DNA of 33,060 nucleotides from a virus. The stretch is from positions 1 to 33,060 of IMG/VR virus record IMGVR_UViG_3300005613_000247; one strand, written 5' to 3'. The translations under genes and the position numbers were made by a program. Positions 1 through 33,060 of the stretch are shown here, piece after piece. Position 1 is the first letter of the stretch. Each line of letters starts with the position of its first letter. Under the pieces are notes generated by a model. It worked only from the letters and a program-made list of their open reading frames with translations, did no database searches and was not told the DNA's origin.

Positions 1-27
1 TAATGTAGATAAAGTTAAATTAGTCAT
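1..27 (-). CDS. 5' fragment of small membrane protein gene (cut by window edge)
   Basis: The reverse strand reads the start codon (27-25) and the first nine codons, MTNLTLSTL, identical to the start of the complete gene at 31446-31613. The rest lies off the left edge, i.e. in the right-hand copy if the molecule is circular. Confidence 0.75.
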
Positions 28-72
28 TTTAGTTCCCCTTAAATTAAGCAATAATTATTCATTTATATGCAC

Positions 73-100
73 ATTATAACGCCATAACGTCAAATGTCAA
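73..100 (-). promoter_or_regulatory. Leftward sigma70-type promoter (copy 1)
   Basis: On the minus strand TTGACA (100-95) and TATAAT (78-73) are separated by 16 bases, and an A-run lies upstream of the -35. Both hexamers are full consensus. It would drive the leftward small-gene operon beginning at 27 here (31613 in the right-hand copy). The same -35 / 16-base / -10 design recurs at 26784-26811 and 29560-29587. Confidence 0.75.
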
Positions 101-138
101 GCTTTTTTTAAAATAAATTTATAAAAAATTAAAAATAA

Positions 139-167
139 TTGCTTAATTATATAGGATGTTCTATTAT
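139..167 (+). promoter_or_regulatory. Rightward promoter of the late operon (copy 1)
   Basis: TTGCTT (139-144), 17-base spacer, TATTAT (162-167). Predicted start of transcription is about 174, exactly where the 5' strand of the long stem 175-185/267-277 begins. Both hexamers are unchanged in the right-hand copy (31725-31753). It faces away from the leftward promoter at 73-100, so the 60-170 region is a divergent control region. Confidence 0.55.
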
Positions 168-173
168 AGTAGG

Positions 174-299
174 TGCGGGCAGAGATTTTTGTATTGTTGC
201 GCTATGACGTTCTGATGGAAATTTGCGCGAAGGTCTATCAGATATCAGAATGTGTAATATTGGCGGTTTCTGTCCGCTTATTAATAAAAAGGAGGAAAA
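174..299 (+). promoter_or_regulatory. Structured 5' leader RNA before the late operon (copy 1)
   Basis: In RNA, 175-185 (GCGGGCAGAGA) can pair with 267-277 (TTTCTGTCCGC), 11 pairs with two G-U. An inner stem joins 207-216 and 244-253 (10 pairs, one G-U). A competing short hairpin 263-266/274-277 (GCGG/CCGC) uses the same 3' strand, so two exclusive states are possible just 11 bases before the ribosome site (AAAGGAGG, 288-295). The outer stem is identical in the right-hand copy while the apical loop is diverged. It matches no riboswitch class I recognise. Function (translation control, mRNA protection) is inference. Confidence 0.5.
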
Positions 300-515
300 A
301 TGAAGGCTATACTTGAATTTGATTTGCCAGCAGATAACGAAAACTTTTATGGAGCAGGTAAGGCACTGGTTTTTTGGCTTTGTCTAAGTGAGTTTGAAGA
401 ATATTTAGAAGAAAATGTAAGTACAAATGAATATAATTATATTGATAAAATACATAATGCTTTTTTGGATATACTAGAAGATCATAATGTAACATTGAAC
501 GAATATAGTAAATAA
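300..515 (+). CDS. Small hypothetical phage protein, 71 aa
   Basis: First gene behind the leader; ATG follows AAAGGAGGAAAA. The start MKAILEFDLP resembles a common family of short phage proteins that begin MKA(I/T)LEF(D/N)LPED, of unknown function. It is acidic and probably helical, with no membrane segment. In the right-hand copy (32629-32697) the same start leads to only 22 residues because 346-529 is absent. Just downstream, 530-611 resembles a decayed continuation of a related gene (an open stretch LTNSLKYVIDSRLRRNK in another frame). The real gene and start are well supported; no function can be given. Confidence 0.7.
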   Translation: MKAILEFDLPADNENFYGAGKALVFWLCLSEFEEYLEENVSTNEYNYIDKIHNAFLDILEDHNVTLNEYSK

Positions 516-529
516 GAAGGGATATCAGT

Positions 530-611
530 TATAATTTGTTCTACATGGGACATTAAAAAACTTGACAAATTCTCTAAAATATGTAATAGATTCAAGGTTA
601 AGGAGGAATAA
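530..611 (+). pseudogene. Probable remnant of a second MKAILEF-type gene
   Basis: This stretch has no start or full reading frame, but pieces look coding in two frames: YNLFYMGH before a stop and LTNSLKYVIDSRLRRNK after it. In the right-hand copy the first piece is fused in frame to the MKAILEFDLP start. It ends in the ribosome site (AAGGAGGAATAA) of the next gene. Best read as scar tissue of a gene related to 300-515. Confidence 0.35.
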
Positions 612-1084
612 GTGAATAAAGAAGAAGATATAAAACTTGAAAATATTTTTTTTATAACTCAAGGAGATATTGAGGCGGCAAAAATTGGTGTTCCTTACGA
701 ATGTAAAGATAATGTTTATAGTACATTTACAGAAGCTGTAGAAGCTGCGTGTGATAAAGATGCTTACATAGCTAGTAAACATAATTGGAGCATCTATAAA
801 GGTGGTTTTGCTGAAGAAGCTGAAAAAGATATAAAACTTGATGAGTCTGATGAGAAACATGAACTAGAAGAAGAGCCTGCTAATAATCAATGTTTTATAA
901 AAATAAACGCTAATCTGGATAAATCTAAATTGCCTTCGGGGTTTCAGCGCTTGAAATTAAAGCCAATAAAGTAGATGTGTTTTTAGATATAAATGAGATT
1001 ATTGATAAAAAGCCTAATATATTATGGCAACGGATAAAAAAACTATTTAAAGTATTTAATAGGCGGATTTATACGGAAAAATAA
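612..1084 (+). pseudogene. Acidic hypothetical protein, frameshifted in this copy
   Basis: GTG start at 612 behind AAGGAGGAATAA. The frame as read stops at 974 (120 aa, ending LKPIK). The right-hand copy (32753-33025) shows the intended end: there the run at 32878-32882 is GGGGG, here 938-941 is GGGG. Adding one G restores a frame that continues to TAA at 1082-1084 with the same C-terminus (…KKLFKVFNR). Compared with the right copy this one also has 201 extra in-frame bases between 15-bp direct repeats at 626-640 and 827-841. The protein is rich in Glu and Asp and has no recognised domain. The frameshift may be real or a homopolymer error. Confidence 0.7.
626..841 (+). repeat. 15-bp direct repeats flanking a 201-bp segment
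   Basis: AGATATAAAACTTGA occurs at 626-640 and again at 827-841. The distance, 201 bases, is a multiple of three. The right-hand copy of the region contains only one such unit (with two changes), as expected from deletion between the repeats or from a gain of the segment in this copy. Confidence 0.75.
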
Positions 1085-1097
1085 CGGAATAAAGAAA

Positions 1098-1583
1098 ATG
1101 GAAAATAAAGAGAAAATAGTAACAGGCAGCTCTAAAAATGCAGTTGCAATTATAGACAATAGAGACGATAAAGGTAGGTTCAAAAAAGGAAATACGTGGG
1201 GTTCTGTAAAATCTCGACCAGTCAAACAATCGCTTATCATGAAACAGTTCATGACAACTGATGAATTTCTATCTCTTAATAGAAAAGCTTATGAACTAGC
1301 ATTGGCTGGCGATACTAAAATGCTAGAATTATATATTAAGCCGCTTCTTCCTAATCGCTCTGATGCTGTTATTTATTGTGATGGCTGGGACAAAGGAACA
1401 ACTCAGGAAAGATTGCAAGCTATTATAGATCATGTGAATGCCGGAGTTCTTACGCCAGCAGAGGGAGAAAGGCTATCTAATATTGTAGACAAGTATACTC
1501 GGAGCGTAGAGATGATAGAACTGTCTAATAAGATAGATGCTTTGATAGAAGAAAAAGAAAAAAGGGAGCAAGAGAATGTGTGA
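1098..1583 (+). CDS. Terminase small subunit (likely)
   Basis: 161 aa, directly before the large terminase and its small neighbours, the usual place of the DNA-recognition subunit of the packaging motor. Residues about 24-35 (DKGRFKKGNTWG) match the GRFxKGxxxNP-like start of a family of phage small terminases and related proteins. The C-terminal half is helical and charged (ERLSNIVDKYTRSVEMIELSNKIDALIEE), fitting oligomerisation. In P22 the pac site lies in this gene; whether it does here cannot be told. The last bases (ATGTGTGA) overlap the start of the next gene. The window's right edge stops 22 bases into the second copy of this gene. Confidence 0.7.
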   Translation: MENKEKIVTGSSKNAVAIIDNRDDKGRFKKGNTWGSVKSRPVKQSLIMKQFMTTDEFLSLNRKAYELALAGDTKMLELYIKPLLPNRSDAVIYCDGWDKGTTQERLQAIIDHVNAGVLTPAEGERLSNIVDKYTRSVEMIELSNKIDALIEEKEKREQENV

Positions 1584-1740
1584 TGAGAAAAATAGTAAGC
1601 CTTTTAAATTAAAGCGACGTACAAAACTCAATGATGATATAATAGAGGTTATTGAGCGTAGACATAAAATGTTAGAAGAGAAAATGGAAGAAATAAAAGC
1701 ATTAATTGAGGAGATGAAAATAAACGAACATTTGTGGTAA
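1576..1740 (+). CDS. Small hypothetical protein, 54 aa
   Basis: ATG overlaps the stop of the small terminase (ATGTGTGA), a sign of translational coupling; GGGAGCAAGAG lies upstream. The product starts MCDEKNSKPF, has a basic patch (KLKRRTK) and then a likely coiled coil (IERRHKMLEEKMEEIKALI). The next gene but one starts with almost the same bases (ATGTGTGATGA), so the two starts may share ancestry. Function unknown. Confidence 0.55.
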   Translation: MCDEKNSKPFKLKRRTKLNDDIIEVIERRHKMLEEKMEEIKALIEEMKINEHLW

Positions 1741-1759
1741 TCGCAAAAGGAGAACAATA

Positions 1760-1894
1760 ATGTGTGATGAAGAAATTAGAAAAGTCATAAAAAGAGCTAT
1801 CGAAGATGTTAATGAGATATTAGATAAGTACGGAGCAGAAAAAATACATGACACTACTCAAGATTTTTTAATAACTACTTTAGTTAAAGGTTAA
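1760..1894 (+). CDS. Small hypothetical protein, 44 aa
   Basis: ATG follows AAAGGAGAACAATA. It starts MCDEEIRKVI, echoing the MCDE start of the gene at 1576-1740, and is mainly helical and acidic. It lies in the tight run of tiny genes between the two terminase subunits. No family recognised. Confidence 0.5.
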   Translation: MCDEEIRKVIKRAIEDVNEILDKYGAEKIHDTTQDFLITTLVKG

Positions 1895-1907
1895 ATGGAA
1901 AATAAGA

Positions 1908-2078
1908 ATGTTAATTAATCGTTACAGAATAGTAAATGGAAGAAAAGAATATTATCATTTTGAAACAGAATTTAAAGCATGCAAAAATGATAAGAAAAAG
2001 TTTACCGAGTTAGCTAAAGAAGAAAAAAAGTGGTGGGAATCAAGATTTGATAACGTAAGGAAGGTATCAGATGACTAA
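1908..2078 (+). CDS. Small basic hypothetical protein, 56 aa
   Basis: ATG at 1908; the stop (2076-2078) overlaps the start of the large terminase, so the genes are probably coupled. The product is rich in Lys, Arg and aromatic residues (RYRIVNGRKEYYHFE; KKWWESRFDNVRK), which could suit nucleic-acid binding, but no domain is recognised. The upstream ribosome site is weak (no clear GGAGG). Confidence 0.45.
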   Translation: MLINRYRIVNGRKEYYHFETEFKACKNDKKKFTELAKEEKKWWESRFDNVRKVSDD

Positions 2079-6086: not shown

Positions 6087-6641
6087 TTATTGTTTAAGTG
6101 CTAAATAATTGTAAAAGGTTTGTTTACTTATGTTATACATTGCACAAAGTTCTTTAATGGTGCTTGATTTCTTTTCATATAATTCTATTAATCTATCTAC
6201 TTGCTTATCATTCAATAATTTAGGCCTGCCTCCATAAAGACCTCTTTTACGTGCAGCTTTTAGTCCTGCTTGTGTTCTTTCTACAATTATATCGTGCTCA
6301 AATTCTGCCAATGCACCAAAGATATGAAATATTAATTTCCCGGAGCTTGTTGTAGTATCAATATTTTCTTGTAAGCTTTTAAATCCGATTTGCTTATTAT
6401 TTAATAATTGAATAGTTTTTATCAGGTGTGTAATTGAACGTCCTAATCTATCGAGCTTCCATACAACAATAGCATCATTTTTACGTACATAATTCATAGC
6501 TTTGTCAAGACCCAATCTTTCTTCTTTTTTGCCATTAGCAACATCACTGTATATTTTCTCGCAGCCATCTTTTTTTAAAGCGTCTATTTGTAGATTTAGA
6601 CTTTGATCACTTGTCGAAACTCTTGCGTATCCTATTTTCAT
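6087..6641 (-). CDS. Serine recombinase, resolvase/invertase family
   Basis: 184 aa, the full usual size of small serine recombinases (Tn3 resolvase, Hin/Gin/Pin). It cuts and rejoins DNA at paired sites through a 5' phosphoserine link. Catalytic features: YARVSTSDQ with Ser9, and VVWKLDRLGRS at 59-69 with the conserved Arg pair. The N-terminal domain is followed by the long E helix (LAEFEHDIIVERTQAG) and a C-terminal HTH (about 140-180, STIKELCAMYNISKQTFYNYL). It lies backwards inside the late operon, with the neighbour at 6638-7006 overlapping its start and their own promoter at 7036-7064. No flanking invertible tail segment is obvious. Role could be resolution of multimers, site-specific integration of the cassette, or inversion; undecided. 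Confidence 0.92.
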   Translation of the reverse strand: MKIGYARVSTSDQSLNLQIDALKKDGCEKIYSDVANGKKEERLGLDKAMNYVRKNDAIVVWKLDRLGRSITHLIKTIQLLNNKQIGFKSLQENIDTTTSSGKLIFHIFGALAEFEHDIIVERTQAGLKAARKRGLYGGRPKLLNDKQVDRLIELYEKKSSTIKELCAMYNISKQTFYNYLALKQ

Positions 6642-23474: not shown

Positions 23475-23518
23475 GCTATTTACTCCTTGTAGTTATGCGG
23501 CTACTAAATGTAAATAGC
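23475..23518. terminator. Nested stem-loop between the converging operons (possible terminator)
   Basis: GCTATTTAC (23475-23483) pairs with GTAAATAGC (23510-23518), and inside it GTAG (23489-23492) with CTAC (23501-23504). It lies in the 121-base gap between the end of the late operon and the end of the leftward operon. There is no strong T-run straight after it on either strand (TTTT is 5' on the plus strand, i.e. AAAA in reverse sense next to the stem reads TTTT for neither transcript fully), so termination is plausible but not certain. Confidence 0.4.
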
Positions 23519-23730: not shown

Positions 23731-24039
23731 TTAATCTTCTTTAGCATCATCAATAAATTGATTAATAAATAACAAATCATTTTTATCATTTCTCTCTATC
23801 AAAAAAGAATGCATAGGATGCTGACAGAGATGTGCAATGTCTGTTAAAAGACAAATGTTGCCTCTATTACAACTTTCAACCTCAGCAGGATCATCATTGA
23901 GAACACAAAAACTTTTTATTTTATACAATAATGACTCAACTATCATTTCCATCTCTTCTTTTGTTAATAATACTGTTGCACTTTCAATTTCCATTTTTAA
24001 TCTCCAATATAAAAATTCTTCTAATGTTCCTGATGTCAT
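23731..24039 (-). CDS. Hypothetical protein, 102 aa
   Basis: Start overlaps the RNA ligase stop (TAATG), so translation is probably coupled. Mostly helical and acidic (TLEEFLYWRLKMEIESATVLLTKEEMEMIVESLLYKIKS) with four Cys spread through the second half (CVLNDD…ESCNRGNICLL…HLCQH), not in a clear zinc-finger spacing. Function unknown; possibly works with the ligase because of the coupling. Confidence 0.6.
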   Translation of the reverse strand: MTSGTLEEFLYWRLKMEIESATVLLTKEEMEMIVESLLYKIKSFCVLNDDPAEVESCNRGNICLLTDIAHLCQHPMHSFLIERNDKNDLLFINQFIDDAKED

Positions 24040-24689
24040 TAAACTTCCTGTAATTCTTTTTCAAAATAATCGCGATGCTTTATTTTTACGCGTACTTTTT
24101 TGCCGTGTTCATTTAAAAACGGAAAAGTTCCAACCAGACCTTCGGCATAGAAATTTCCGAATTGTGAAGGCATTCCTTTTTTTACTAGTTCGTATGCTTC
24201 CATTAAAGTTATTTCACCTATTATCGGAACTATAGGAATTTTACTCTGAAGTGAAAAGGCCTTCGTATCAGCATATGGTATATATTTTTTTGCATCATTA
24301 TCATATACATCGAACAAGATAAAAGATTTATTATTTCTATATTTTCCACCTTTATTAATGCCTGGTCCGTATCCTTCGCCATAAAATACAACATTACTAG
24401 TTTGAACTTTTTTAAACATTTCTTTAATAATCATAACAATATCAGGCGGTAATTGTGCCTTATCAGTTCTCCCTCTAATTTCCATTTCACCATTTTCATC
24501 GAAAATAACACGGATGTTCATCCCATCAATTTTTTCAGTAAAAATCCATTTATAATCTTTTAAATATTCAAACTCATCGCATGAAAATTCAGTAGTACGG
24601 CACTTAGTTTCTTGATCAAATTTAAACAGATTTAATATTTTAGGATATTTTTTAATTACTTGCCTCTTAAAACGGAATATCATCATCAA
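24039..24689 (-). CDS. RNA ligase, Rnl2-like nucleotidyltransferase
   Basis: 216 aa. Joins 3'-OH and 5'-phosphate ends after self-adenylation. All five nucleotidyltransferase motifs are visible: I EKIDG (Lys53), Ia RGRTDK (72-77), III FYGEGYG (102-108), IIIa SFILFDVYD (122-130), IV AEGLVG (182-187) and V VRVKIKH (199-205). There is no OB-fold or C-terminal Rnl2 helical domain, so it is a minimal catalytic version. Start ATG 24689 lies inside the end of the SSB-like gene and has a poor ribosome site, so an internal start is possible. It sits in an operon with annealing and ssDNA-binding proteins. Confidence 0.88.
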   Translation of the reverse strand: MMMIFRFKRQVIKKYPKILNLFKFDQETKCRTTEFSCDEFEYLKDYKWIFTEKIDGMNIRVIFDENGEMEIRGRTDKAQLPPDIVMIIKEMFKKVQTSNVVFYGEGYGPGINKGGKYRNNKSFILFDVYDNDAKKYIPYADTKAFSLQSKIPIVPIIGEITLMEAYELVKKGMPSQFGNFYAEGLVGTFPFLNEHGKKVRVKIKHRDYFEKELQEV

Positions 24690-26811: not shown

Positions 26812-26904
26812 GTATTTTTTTAAATTTATTTTATATTATTTTTAATTTTTTATGATAATATAGTGGGCCAATCTATAAATTTTGTCAAATTAAAGGAGGT
26901 GGAA

Positions 26905-27189
26905 ATGGCAAAAAATCAATATAATATTATTTCAAATTTACGTAAATATAGACATTTAGCAGGTTTAACTTTAATGCAACTTGCTGAACTGACTGGTTTT
27001 ACGATAACTAGTTTAAGTCAATGGGAAAAAGGTGATAGAGTTCCCAATATATCTAATGCTATAATTATAATTAATATTCTTAATGAAATATTATGTGAAA
27101 TGAAAAAGACTGGTTTTCCTGTAAAACCTGGTTTAACTTTAGATAGTATCTGGGAAATTAAAAATAATACCGAGGTTGAAACTCAATAA
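26905..27189 (+). CDS. XRE-family transcriptional regulator (Cro/CI-like)
   Basis: 94 aa from ATG 26905, behind the very strong TAAAGGAGGTGGAA; an ATG 42 bases upstream lacks such a site. HTH at about 10-60: ISNLRKYRHLAGLTLMQLAELTGFTITSLSQWEKGDRVPNISNA. No peptidase (S24) domain, so more like Cro or a simple repressor. It is divergent from the recombination operon and starts the replication operon. It may reflect a decision switch, but no integrase accompanies it. Confidence 0.85.
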   Translation: MAKNQYNIISNLRKYRHLAGLTLMQLAELTGFTITSLSQWEKGDRVPNISNAIIIINILNEILCEMKKTGFPVKPGLTLDSIWEIKNNTEVETQ

Positions 27190-27204: not shown

Positions 27205-28107
27205 GTGTCAAGATATATTTGTTTACATAGAACTATTTGGAATGATGATAAATTTCCATTTCTCAACACAGATACCCAAATAGTTGTGTTTCATTTGTTC
27301 ACTACTTATTACGGAAATCCTCTTGGTCTTTTTAAGGCATCCACAGGAGCTTTAGCAGATGAAATTCGATGGAAGAGAAAAAGGTACGAGGATGCCATCC
27401 GGGATGCCATCTCGTATGGCATCCTCGATGCCTGCGAGAAGCATCAAATGGTCTACATAAAAAACTTCTTAAAGTACAATCCGCCAACTTCTCCAAAATC
27501 TTATAAGAAATGGAACACTATGATAAAGTCTCTTCCAGAGTGCAGATTAAAAAATCAATGGTATCAAGACTTTACAGAAAATAAACATGGCATCTCAGAT
27601 GGCATCTGGCATGCCATCCTCGATGCCATCTCGATACCATCGGGGATGGGACCCCCGATCCAGGAACAGGAACAGGAACAGTATCAGGAGAAGGAAAAAG
27701 AAAATGTAAAAAGAAAAAATCATGCCATCCCAGATGCCAAAAATTCTCTCCCCATTGTTGAGCAAACAAGTTGCTCAACCCCCCAATCAATAAAAATAAT
27801 TTTTGAGTATTGGAAAGAGATTTTAGATCATCCAAAAGCCATACTTGACAACAAGCGAAAAAGTTTGATACGAAATGCTTTGAAATTGTACAAAGGCGAT
27901 CCTGAGCCTTTAAAACAAGCTATTTTGGGATGTTCAAAGTCAAAATGGCATATGGGAAATCACCCTAAAAATCATAAAAAAGTTGATGATCTTGGTTTGA
28001 TTTTACGTGATGCTAGCTACATTGAAAAATTCATGCATATTGCCGAACATCCGGAAAATTCGAAATCAATTGATGATGTGATTGTTGATGAAATAACAGG
28101 TACTTAG
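27205..28107 (+). CDS. Phage replication initiation protein (O-like), contains origin iterons
   Basis: 300 aa, GTG start behind CAGGAGGTTAGA. N-terminal winged-helix-type region (about 1-95: WNDDKFPFLNTDTQIVVFHLFTTYYGN…FKASTGALADEIRWKRKRYEDAI) is that of phage initiators. A low-complexity middle (about 125-190, QEQEQEQYQEKEKE) follows, then the C-terminal domain (about 195-290: IFEYWKEILDHPKAILDNKRKSLIRNAL…GCSKSKWHMG…DDLGLILRDASYIEKFM) typical of these proteins. The gene carries GATGSCATC repeats at 12-bp phase, as lambda O carries its origin. Confidence 0.82.
   Translation: MSRYICLHRTIWNDDKFPFLNTDTQIVVFHLFTTYYGNPLGLFKASTGALADEIRWKRKRYEDAIRDAISYGILDACEKHQMVYIKNFLKYNPPTSPKSYKKWNTMIKSLPECRLKNQWYQDFTENKHGISDGIWHAILDAISIPSGMGPPIQEQEQEQYQEKEKENVKRKNHAIPDAKNSLPIVEQTSCSTPQSIKIIFEYWKEILDHPKAILDNKRKSLIRNALKLYKGDPEPLKQAILGCSKSKWHMGNHPKNHKKVDDLGLILRDASYIEKFMHIAEHPENSKSIDDVIVDEITGT
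27391..27432. repeat. Iteron cluster 1 in the initiator gene
   Basis: GATGCCATC at 27391 and 27403, the opposite orientation ATGGCATC at 27416, and a half unit GATGCC at 27427. The units are in a 12-base phase. The 9-mer GATGSCATC is itself a palindrome around its central base. Confidence 0.8.
27587..27641. repeat. Iteron cluster 2 in the initiator gene
   Basis: ATGGCATC at 27587 and 27599, ATGCCATC at 27611, GATGCCATC at 27622, and a variant GATACCATC at 27633, again at 12-base steps (last step 11). Two units read in each orientation, so the cluster is roughly symmetric around 27608. Confidence 0.8.
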
Positions 28108-29005: not shown

Positions 29006-29191
29006 TTAGCCAATTTTATTTATGAAAATAGGGGGCTGTACATCTGGAAGTACTTGCCCAGGAATTGTTATACTGTACAAAGTACCATCAACGTCCATTG
29101 TGTAATTTTGAAAATCCATGACATCTGCCTTTGATGGCGTTATAACGAAACTAAATATGAGTGAAAATATGAGTGCTAAAGATTTAATCAT
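29006..29191 (-). CDS. Small secreted protein with signal peptide, 61 aa
   Basis: Chosen start ATG 29191, directly after the stop of the HTH gene (TAATAATG); an ATG at 29203 overlaps that gene. Typical Sec signal: MIKSLALIFSLIFSFVITPSKA, cleavage likely after Ala22. The mature part is about 39 residues (DVMDFQNYTMDVDGTLYSITIPGQ…). No lipobox. An exported early phage peptide suggests a periplasmic or envelope role such as superinfection exclusion, but that is inference. Confidence 0.6.
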   Translation of the reverse strand: MIKSLALIFSLIFSFVITPSKADVMDFQNYTMDVDGTLYSITIPGQVLPDVQPPIFINKIG

Positions 29192-29193
29192 TA

Positions 29194-29382
29194 TTATTTC
29201 CATCTTTCAGATTGTTTCCAGCTTCTTTTGAATATATCTAGGAAACTTTTATCTATAAGCCAATCTCGACCAAATTTACGTGACGGTATAAATCCTTGTT
29301 GGCACAAAGATTGAATTCTTCTCTGTGATTTTCCTATTTCTTTGGCAACTTCTGTTGTTGTTAAATAATTCTTATATGACAT
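29194..29382 (-). CDS. Excisionase-type HTH DNA-binding protein, 62 aa
   Basis: HTH_17/MerR-like winged helix: YLTTTEVAKEIGKSQRRIQSLCQQGFIPSRKFGRDWLIDKSFLDIF. First gene after the long structured leader at 29412-29555. Start ATG 29382 behind AAAGAGGTTATAG. Without an integrase it is more likely a regulator than a true excisionase. Confidence 0.8.
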   Translation of the reverse strand: MSYKNYLTTTEVAKEIGKSQRRIQSLCQQGFIPSRKFGRDWLIDKSFLDIFKRSWKQSERWK

Positions 29383-31492: not shown

Positions 31493-31613
31493 TTTTTGCA
31501 GCTATGTAAAGAGATATAATTATACCTGTTATCCAAGTGCTTATAATAGCTATTAATAATGTTCCTATCAATGAGCATGTTGGATATAATGTAGATAAAG
31601 TTAAATTAGTCAT
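31446..31613 (-). CDS. Small membrane protein, 55 aa, first gene of leftward operon
   Basis: ATG 31613 behind TTTAAGGGGAACTAAA; a start further upstream lacks such a site. One long or two short membrane helices (about 8-45, LYPTCSLIGTLLIAIISTWITGIIISLYIAAKI) and an acidic tail (EQNDNEDQAVQKKI). About 40 bases after the predicted start of transcription of the promoter at 31659-31686. The first nine codons are repeated at the left edge (1-27). Confidence 0.65.
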   Translation of the reverse strand: MTNLTLSTLYPTCSLIGTLLIAIISTWITGIIISLYIAAKIEQNDNEDQAVQKKI

Positions 31614-31658
31614 TTTAGTTCCCCTTAAATTAAGCAATAATTATTCATTTATATGCAC

Positions 31659-31686
31659 ATTATAACGCCATAACGTCAAATGTCAA
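31659..31686 (-). promoter_or_regulatory. Leftward promoter of the early small-gene operon (copy 2)
   Basis: Same as 73-100: minus-strand TTGACA (31686-31681), 16-base spacer, TATAAT (31664-31659). Here the complete operon lies downstream, starting with the membrane protein gene at 31613. Confidence 0.75.
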
Positions 31687-31724
31687 GCTTTTTTTAAAAT
31701 AAATTTATACAAAATTAAAAATAA

Positions 31725-31753
31725 TTGCTTAATTATATGGAATGTTCTATTAT
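31725..31753 (+). promoter_or_regulatory. Rightward promoter (copy 2), here ahead of the methyltransferase
   Basis: TTGCTT (31725-31730), 17-base spacer, TATTAT (31748-31753), same as 139-167. Two base changes in the spacer relative to the left copy. Confidence 0.55.
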
Positions 31754-31759
31754 AGTAGG

Positions 31760-31881
31760 TGCGGGCAGAGATTTTTGTATTGTTGCGCTATGACGTTCTG
31801 ATGTAAGGTCGCGCGAATGTCTAGAAGATATCAGAATATGTAATATTGGCGGTTTCTGTCCGCTTATTAATAAAAAGGAGG
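31760..31881 (+). promoter_or_regulatory. Structured leader RNA (copy 2)
   Basis: The outer stem 31761-31771/31853-31863 is base-for-base the same as in copy 1. The apical loop carries seven substitutions in 27 bases versus copy 1 but keeps the self-complementary GCGC core (here TCGCGCGA). One inner-stem pair is lost (G to A at the equivalent of 252). Leads into a gene remnant and the methyltransferase rather than the 71-aa gene. The 31614-31935 interval otherwise has no intact gene. Confidence 0.5.
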
Positions 31882-31961
31882 ATATAACTGCTTATGAAAA
31901 TCCAACAAACGAGAAATTAGTTAAGGAGATGAAAGATGGAACATATACCATTTCCAAATAA
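31881..31961 (+). pseudogene. 3' remnant of an unknown gene fused to the leader
   Basis: An open frame without a start codon reads DITAYENPTNEKLVKEMKDGTYTISK and stops at 31961, overlapping the methyltransferase start. The match with the left copy ends right where it begins, so it marks a recombination junction that brought in the tail of another gene. Confidence 0.45.
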
Positions 31962-32478
31962 GAAGTATCAGATTATATATGCCGACCCGCCGTGGAGTTA
32001 TAGGGACAAAGCCTTGGCTGGTAATCGTGGTGCAGGATGTAAGTATCAAGTTCAAGAAAAAGAATGGATAGATGACTTACCTGTTTCAGGCATAGCAGAT
32101 AAAGACTGTATTCTTTTCTTGTGGGTTACAATGCCAAGACTAAACGAGTGTTGGGAACTTATAGAAAAATGGGGGTTTGAGTATAAAACAGTTGCTTTTA
32201 CTTGGGTTAAAAGAAACAAAAAAAGCAATAGTTGGTTTTGGGGCATGGGTAGTTGGACAAGGGCGAACGCAGAGCTGTGCTTGATTGCAACTAAAGGAAA
32301 ACCCAAAAGAATAAATGCAGGCGTTCATTCCGTGATAGACACATCTATTGAAGGGCACAGTAAAAAGCCCGATGAAGTAAAAAGAAGGATTATTAATTTG
32401 GTAGGTGATTTGCCACGAATAGAGTTATTTGCCAGACAAAAGACTGATGGCTGGGATGTTTGGGGCAATGAAGTATGA
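31936..32478 (+). CDS. MT-A70-family DNA adenine N6-methyltransferase
   Basis: 180 aa, behind TTAAGGAGATGAAAG. Catalytic motif ADPPWSY at about 16-22 (DPPW, the MT-A70 hallmark), then LFLWVTMPRLNECWELIEKWGFEYKTVAFTWVK and GSWTRANAELCLIATKGKP, and the end KPDEVKRRIINLVGDLPRIELFARQKTDGWDVWGNEV typical of phage and plasmid members. Uses S-adenosylmethionine to make N6-methyladenine, probably shielding phage DNA from restriction. Present only in the right-hand version of the repeat, flanked by gene scraps, so acquired as mobile cargo behind the late promoter. Confidence 0.9.
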   Translation: MEHIPFPNKKYQIIYADPPWSYRDKALAGNRGAGCKYQVQEKEWIDDLPVSGIADKDCILFLWVTMPRLNECWELIEKWGFEYKTVAFTWVKRNKKSNSWFWGMGSWTRANAELCLIATKGKPKRINAGVHSVIDTSIEGHSKKPDEVKRRIINLVGDLPRIELFARQKTDGWDVWGNEV

Positions 32479-32552
32479 AAATCTATAAAATCACCGAAGC
32501 AAGCGAATATCTTGGGGTGTCAATCAATTTATTCCGCCCGTTTTTACGGTAG
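32475..32552 (+). pseudogene. Truncated HTH (excisionase-like) gene, 25 codons
   Basis: ATG overlaps the methyltransferase stop (ATGA). MKIYKITEASEYLGVSINLFRPFLR is the first half of an HTH_17-type domain (pattern 'ykI.EaAeyLGVs..TLrrWdr') and then stops. Downstream, another frame stays open (PPVFTVEEAAERRKIRLKM…) up to the next gene's start, like the end of a second protein. Both look like pieces joined at recombination points. Confidence 0.6.
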
Positions 32553-32632
32553 AAGAGGCGGCAGAAAGAAGAAAAATACGGCTGAAAATGAGCCTAACGA
32601 ATCTAATGGAATTTAAAAAGGAGGAAAAATGA
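32534..32632 (+). pseudogene. 3' remnant of another unknown gene
   Basis: Open frame PPVFTVEEAAERRKIRLKMSLTNLMEF then KKEEK and TGA, without a start. The last codons run through the ribosome site AAAAAGGAGGAAAAATG of the next gene, where similarity to the left copy resumes. Confidence 0.35.
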
Positions 32633-32697
32633 AGGCTATACTTGAATTTGATTTGCCGGAAGATAACGAATATAATTTGTTCTACATGGGACATTAA
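32629..32697 (+). pseudogene. Shortened copy of the MKAILEF gene, 22 codons
   Basis: MKAILEFDLPEDNEYNLFYMGH, then stop. Equivalent to the start of the gene at 300-515 joined to the segment found at 530 in the left copy; the 184 bases between are missing. Followed by an open piece LTNALKYAIDSRLRRNK in another frame, suggesting the ancestor was longer and a small frame error or decay occurred here too. Confidence 0.5.
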
Positions 32698-32752
32698 AAA
32701 ACTTGACAAATGCCCTTAAATATGCAATAGATTCAAGGTTAAGGAGGAATAA

Positions 32753-33025
32753 GTGAATAAAAAAGAAGATATAAATTTTGATGAGTCTGATGAGAAACAT
32801 GAACTAGAAGAAGAGCCTGCTAATAATCAATGTTTTATAAAAATAAACGCTGATCTGGATAAATCTAAATTGCCTTCGGGGGTTTCAGCACTTGAAATTA
32901 AAGCCAATAAAGTAGATGTGTTTTTAGATATAAATGAGATTATTGATAAAAAGCCTAATATATTATGGCAACGGATAAAAAAACTATTTAAAGTATTTAA
33001 TAGGCCGATTTATACGGAAAAATAG
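32753..33025 (+). CDS. Acidic hypothetical protein, intact copy, 90 aa
   Basis: GTG start behind AAGGAGGAATAA. Reads MNKKEDINFDESDEKHELEEEPANNQ…SGVSALEIKANKVDVFLDINEIIDKKPNILWQRIKKLFKVFNRPIYTEK. It is the unbroken counterpart of the frameshifted gene at 612-1084 and lacks that copy's 67-codon central segment. The C-terminal half (VDVFLDINEIIDKKPNILWQRIKKLFK) is probably helical and basic. Immediately precedes the second copy of the small terminase start. Function unknown. Confidence 0.65.
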   Translation: MNKKEDINFDESDEKHELEEEPANNQCFIKINADLDKSKLPSGVSALEIKANKVDVFLDINEIIDKKPNILWQRIKKLFKVFNRPIYTEK

Positions 33026-33038
33026 CGGAATAAAGAAA

Positions 33039-33060
33039 ATGGAAAATAAAGAGAAAATAG
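33039..33060 (+). CDS. 5' fragment of small terminase gene (cut by window edge)
   Basis: ATG and the next codons (MENKEKI) are identical to 1098-1119. The window ends here; continuation is the gene at 1098-1583 if the molecule is circular. Confidence 0.8.

What the first reader, a model, noticed from the sequence alone, without database searches (positions are those of the whole stretch)
174..299. Structured leader RNA with possible two-state switch before the late operon
A long stem (175-185/267-277) starts about at the predicted transcript 5' end and closes a domain with an inner stem (207-216/244-253). A short hairpin (263-266/274-277) competes for the same 3' strand next to the ribosome site. 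The outer stem is fully conserved between the two copies. It fits no riboswitch class I know; it could sense a ligand or protein, or protect the late mRNA.
Basis: partly seen in the sequence, partly recalled or inferred. Interest (0 to 1): 0.7.

Follow-up and report, generated by a model that had tools for sequence, protein, structure and literature searches.

The report
Lineage-specific hairpin after conserved phage promoters
The predicted start of a phage's structural-gene messenger RNA folds into a strong hairpin, but two related phages keep the promoters and the first half of that leader while lacking the other half, so it looks like a lineage-specific mRNA cap on an older promoter/operator region rather than a new RNA switch.

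Summary
The hairpin is real. Window 175-277 folds at -41.6 kcal/mol (z -4.6 to -5.9) and begins at the predicted start site of a rightward promoter (TTGCTT-17-TATTAT). It is a sense-strand RNA feature: for this copy the minus-strand RNA and the DNA fold give only z -1.5 and -1.2. The second copy (31761-31863) keeps the 13-bp outer stem but is the same locus in an overlapping contig end, so its agreement says little.

The interpretation mostly fails. The two relatives found in IMG/VR keep the divergent promoter pair and the first ~40 leader nucleotides, yet both lack window ~217-278, the whole 3' half, and their leaders do not fold. The 5' arm is therefore conserved without a pairing partner. 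The proposed alternative hairpin is 9-12 kcal/mol worse, so no two-state switch is supported.

What is conserved is a bidirectional control region. A near-palindrome, CGYYATRRCG, lies inside the perfect leftward promoter and again at about +27 of the rightward transcript, 120-121 bp apart in all three genomes (0.08 sites per genome expected by chance): probably an operator pair. The hairpin is lineage-specific and most likely protects or insulates the mRNA's 5' end. That function is inferred, not shown.

The parts
175..277 (+). 5'-terminal leader hairpin (outer stem 175-187/265-277)
   Evidence: RNA fold -41.6 kcal/mol, z -4.6/-5.9; minus strand and DNA folds weak
139..167 (+). rightward promoter, TTGCTT (139-144) 17 nt TATTAT (162-167); start predicted at about 173-175
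   Evidence: read from sequence; conserved in both relatives
73..100 (-). leftward (early-side) promoter, perfect TTGACA-16-TATAAT
   Evidence: 12 of 12 consensus bases; conserved in both relatives
80..89 (.). near-palindrome O1 (CGCCATAACG) inside the spacer of the leftward promoter
200..209 (.). near-palindrome O2 (CGCTATGACG) about +27 of the rightward transcript, inside the 5' half of the hairpin, 120 bp from O1
173..213 (+). conserved leader segment, shared with G002 (36 of 41 bases) and partly with G001, which both lack the hairpin
217..278 (+). lineage-specific 3' half of the hairpin, absent from G001 and G002
   Evidence: alignment A4
291..296 (+). ribosome-binding site GGAGGA region (AGGAGG), outside the hairpin
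300..515 (+). first cistron, 71 aa, no family match; start of the operon leading to the likely small terminase (1098-1583, unassigned by Pfam/PHROGs), large terminase (2071) and portal
31761..31863 (+). second (allelic) copy of the hairpin at the other contig end; outer stem identical, 8 changes clustered in the apical part
31666..31675 (.). O1 in the second copy
31786..31795 (.). O2 in the second copy
31936..32478 (+). MT-A70 family methyltransferase as first cistron in the second copy, between the same leader and the 71-aa ORF's start

Best explanation
The region is a phage divergent promoter/operator module: a leftward consensus promoter and a rightward promoter for the terminase/structural operon, each carrying one copy of a near-palindromic operator (CGYYATRRCG) 120 bp apart. 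A phage regulator probably binds both sites, within the leftward promoter and as a roadblock or loop partner at about +27 of the rightward transcript. In the window's lineage a ~62-nt segment after the downstream operator is complementary to the first part of the transcript, so the rightward mRNA starts with a long hairpin leaving 0-2 unpaired 5' nucleotides. Most likely that hairpin works as a 5'-terminal stem-loop: it hinders 5'-end-dependent decay (RppH/RNase E type) and keeps the leader from pairing with the ribosome site or with whichever first gene sits behind it. Shown: the fold, its strand specificity, the indel, the promoter and operator-motif conservation. Inferred: start site, regulator binding, stabilising or insulating effect.
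For: Fold and z-scores. Strand-specific RNA structure held through G-U pairs: minus-strand RNA z -1.5, DNA z -1.2. The promoter pair and leader to about +40 are conserved in G001 and G002 while the 3' half is missing. The leader is 36/41 identical to G002 against 64% at third codon positions of the terminase gene. CGYYATRRCG occurs 5, 3 and 3 times in G000, G001 and G002; the promoter pair is spaced 120, 120 and 121 bp; shuffles give 0.08 sites per genome and no such pair in 300; the reversed control pattern gives 0, 1, 0. No terminator-like site in 1-700. RppH and RNase E need single-stranded 5' ends, which explains the known stabilising effect of 5' structures (PMC3997798). The same leader precedes different first genes in the two window copies.
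Against: No transcript or start-site data. The 5' stabiliser reading rests on position and energy alone, and the hairpin is absent from relatives that presumably express the same operon. Only two relatives were found, and the window's two copies are nearly one sequence, so there is no covariation test. The host is unknown, so an RNase E/RppH type decay pathway is assumed. No regulator was identified for the operator.
Confidence: 0.52

Rival explanations
1. The hairpin is a nascent-RNA transcription factor, like HK022 put RNA or a Q-type late leader: it loads on RNA polymerase just after the promoter and makes it resistant to terminators in the long structural operon.
For: It lies immediately downstream of a promoter, as putL does (PMC9378689), in front of a very long operon. 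G002 has a -10-like TATATT in the initially transcribed region.
Against: Missing from both relatives. One long hairpin rather than two stem-loops of ~70 nt. No terminator-like site follows in 1-700.
Confidence: 0.1
2. A ligand- or protein-sensing switch (riboswitch or autoregulatory leader).
For: Stable structure near a ribosome site; the tip varies between the two copies.
Against: Alternative state 9-12 kcal/mol worse; ribosome site not inside the hairpin; no Rfam match; 3' half absent from relatives.
Confidence: 0.05
3. RNase III processing site: the long duplex is cut, giving a defined processed 5' end for the structural mRNA.
For: Long duplex of more than 30 pairs in copy 1.
Against: Interrupted helix, weaker in copy 2, absent in relatives.
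Confidence: 0.13
4. A neutral by-product: a chance or inverted-duplication insertion after the operator, with no function of its own.
For: Present only in this lineage; the apical part is scrambled between the two copies.
Against: All four imperfect outer-stem positions are G-U rather than mismatches, and the structure is specific to the sense strand; inverted-duplication similarity at DNA level is not significant.
Confidence: 0.2

Closest known systems
5'-terminal stabilising stem-loops of bacterial mRNAs (papA and similar; Belasco work cited in PMC3997798)
   Same: stem begins at or within about 2 nt of the predicted 5' end; ribosome site lies outside the stem
   Different: much longer hairpin; no half-life data; host decay machinery unknown
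Divergent phage or plasmid promoter regions with paired operators (lambda OL/OR type, from general knowledge; pLS20 looping switch, PMC4207663, seen as title/abstract only)
   Same: back-to-back promoters with the same near-palindrome at each
   Different: one site per promoter, the second one downstream of the start; regulator not identified; site does not match a motif known to me
HK022 put RNA (PMC9378689)
   Same: structured RNA directly after a phage promoter
   Different: single long hairpin instead of two stem-loops; lineage-specific; no terminator nearby

Membership tests
Riboswitch / sensing leader | conserved aptamer in homologous leaders | tested here: not met
   3' half absent from G001 and G002; no Rfam match
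Riboswitch / sensing leader | two mutually exclusive structures of comparable energy affecting the ribosome site or a terminator | tested here: not met
   alternative 9-12 kcal/mol worse; no terminator-like site
5' stabilising stem-loop | stem starts within 0-3 nt of the 5' end | tested here: inconclusive
   met for the predicted start 173-175; start site not mapped
5' stabilising stem-loop | increases mRNA half-life | not testable with these tools
   needs an experiment
HK022-type put RNA | about 70 nt, two stem-loops | tested here: not met
   single ~103-nt hairpin against the description in PMC9378689
HK022-type put RNA | terminator read-through | not testable with these tools
   needs an in vitro transcription assay
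Divergent promoters with paired operators | same palindromic motif at both promoters, rare elsewhere, conserved in spacing | tested here: met
   120, 120, 121 bp in three genomes; 0.08 sites per genome by chance; one further site at 29138 lies in coding sequence
Divergent promoters with paired operators | bound by a regulator that controls both promoters | not testable with these tools
   candidates only: HTH_3 protein 26863-27189, HTH_17 protein 29194-29382

The most novel reading that the evidence does not exclude
The hairpin is a lineage-specific nascent-RNA element of an undescribed class that modifies RNA polymerase or protects the structural-operon mRNA, whose 5' half doubles as the downstream operator DNA of a looping divergent switch, so that one stretch works as DNA operator and as RNA.
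Probability: 0.07. Interest if true: 0.6.

Novelty: new member of a known kind. Interest (0 to 1): 0.3.

Why it matters
It turns an apparent orphan riboswitch into two testable and more ordinary things: a conserved two-operator divergent promoter in an uncultured P22-like phage group, and a gain or loss of a 5' hairpin on the structural-operon mRNA. It also shows that agreement between two overlapping contig ends is not evolutionary conservation.

Tried and rejected
Rfam scan: none. DNA-pattern scans of IMG/VR for each arm gave the relative G002 (5' arm) and otherwise chance hits inside unrelated genes (L004, L005, L033). The promoter-motif scans gave the two relatives plus loci without the divergent arrangement (L034; L017-L020, L022, L024-L026). 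Portal and small-terminase searches of IMG/VR gave the same two relatives, plus two distant portal matches (L029, L030) whose leaders I did not compare. Bacterial genomes gave no portal relative, and a promoter-motif scan there gave two hits in MAGs that I did not examine. Intrinsic terminator: none found. Inverted-duplication origin of the 3' half: not significant at DNA level. Covariance model not built: only two near-identical hairpins exist, so it would have no power. Third motif copy at 29138: inside a conserved coding sequence, so not counted as an operator.

Full report
What is there. The window is an IMG/VR phage record of 33,060 bases with a P22-like portal and related packaging/head genes. 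Its two ends overlap: 1-296 and 31587-31882 are 96% identical, with further stretches at 91-98%. Both relatives contain this locus once. I read the two copies as two versions of one locus in a permuted genome, so agreement between them is weak evidence.

The hairpin. As RNA, 174-299 folds at -41.6 kcal/mol with z -4.6; 174-278 gives z -5.9 and the second copy z -2.6. The outer stem 175-187/265-277 has 13 pairs, four of them G-U. Because of the G-U pairs the structure is much stronger on the sense RNA: minus-strand RNA z -1.5 (copy 1) and -1.9 (copy 2), DNA z -1.2 and -1.0. In a scan of 3,296 windows of the genome it ranks among the ten or so strongest places. The predicted promoter TTGCTT-17-TATTAT puts the start at 173-175, at the foot of the stem. 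Its inner stem is 6.2 kcal/mol worse than the best fold of copy 1, and its competing short hairpin is 9-12 kcal/mol worse, so a two-state switch is not supported.

Relatives. Searches with the terminase, portal and small-terminase proteins and with DNA patterns found two close relatives in IMG/VR: G001 (3300017963_000161) and G002 (3300042534_000692). Both keep the whole region from the leftward promoter through the rightward promoter to about +40 of the transcript, and then go to the ribosome site: window ~217-278 is absent. Their leaders fold no better than shuffles. The first 41 leader bases are 36/41 identical between window and G002, while third codon positions of the terminase gene are 64% identical; G001's leader is more diverged. 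So the 5' arm is conserved without a partner strand, for another reason than this hairpin. Whether the 3' half was gained here or lost in the other two cannot be told from three genomes.

What is conserved. The leftward promoter is a perfect TTGACA-16-TATAAT. Its spacer contains the near-palindrome CGCCATAACG; the same motif (CGYYATRRCG) recurs in the leader at 200-209. It occurs 5 times in the window (two per copy, plus 29138 inside a coding sequence) and 3 times in each relative. The promoter pair is spaced 120, 120 and 121 bp; shuffles give 0.08 sites per genome and never such a pair in 300, and the reversed control pattern gives 0, 1 and 0. The motif was chosen after seeing these sites, so the shuffle figure flatters it somewhat; the equal spacing in three genomes is the stronger point, tempered by their overall relatedness. 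This looks like an operator pair of a divergent switch. The third site is at the homologous place in coding sequence in all three genomes and may reflect protein conservation. Candidate regulators are an HTH_3 protein (26863-27189) and an HTH_17 protein (29194-29382); no binding was tested.

What the hairpin probably does. It starts at the predicted 5' end, leaves the ribosome site outside the stem, is sense-strand specific, and is kept in both window copies although the first gene behind it differs (71-aa ORF versus an MT-A70 methyltransferase). RppH and RNase E depend on single-stranded 5' ends, which accounts for stabilisation by 5' structures (PMC3997798). A 5'-terminal stabilising or insulating stem is therefore the most likely role, about 0.5 for the whole account. 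RNase III processing, a put-like RNA (PMC9378689) and no function at all are the rivals. The host is unknown and no decay pathway was tested.

Gene order. In window and G001 the rightward promoter leads into the small terminase (my assignment by position; no family match), large terminase and portal. In G002 the block from the large terminase to the lysis genes is inverted relative to the promoter/early block, with breakpoints between small and large terminase and at about window 23505-23514. There the leader precedes small ORFs and the small terminase only. 'Late-operon leader' is thus not a constant property, unless the G002 contig is misassembled.

Verdict. A real but lineage-specific RNA hairpin on an older promoter/operator module; not a riboswitch by any test made here. 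New member of a known kind; interest 0.3.

Noticed in passing
window 1-1119 and 31587-33060: Contig ends overlap with 91-98% identity and an indel: the second version has an MT-A70 methyltransferase (31936-32478) inserted between leader and 71-aa ORF, with the ribosome-site sequence repeated. G001 has yet another first gene there: a likely hot spot for gene exchange.
   Followed up: partly
L007, L008, L032 (G002) against window 1583-2071 and 23505-23514: In G002 the whole late block (large terminase to lysis genes) is inverted relative to the promoter/early block.
   Followed up: partly
window 27378-27740: Cluster of direct and inverted repeats (GATGCCATC units) inside the gene of a DnaD/O-like replication protein (27205-28107); strongest folds of the genome. 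Possibly origin iterons.
   Followed up: partly
window 6087-6641, minus strand: Serine recombinase (resolvase family), ~60% identical to plasmid resolvases, 90% DNA identity in G001; no match in the corresponding stretch of G002.
   Followed up: partly
window 29138-29147: Perfect palindrome CGTTATAACG, a third copy of the operator-like motif, inside a small coding sequence; present at the homologous place in both relatives (CGCTATAACG/CGTTATAACG).
   Followed up: partly
window 24039-24689, minus strand: RNA ligase family protein in the early-side recombination cluster (RecT, DUF669/SSB).
   Followed up: no
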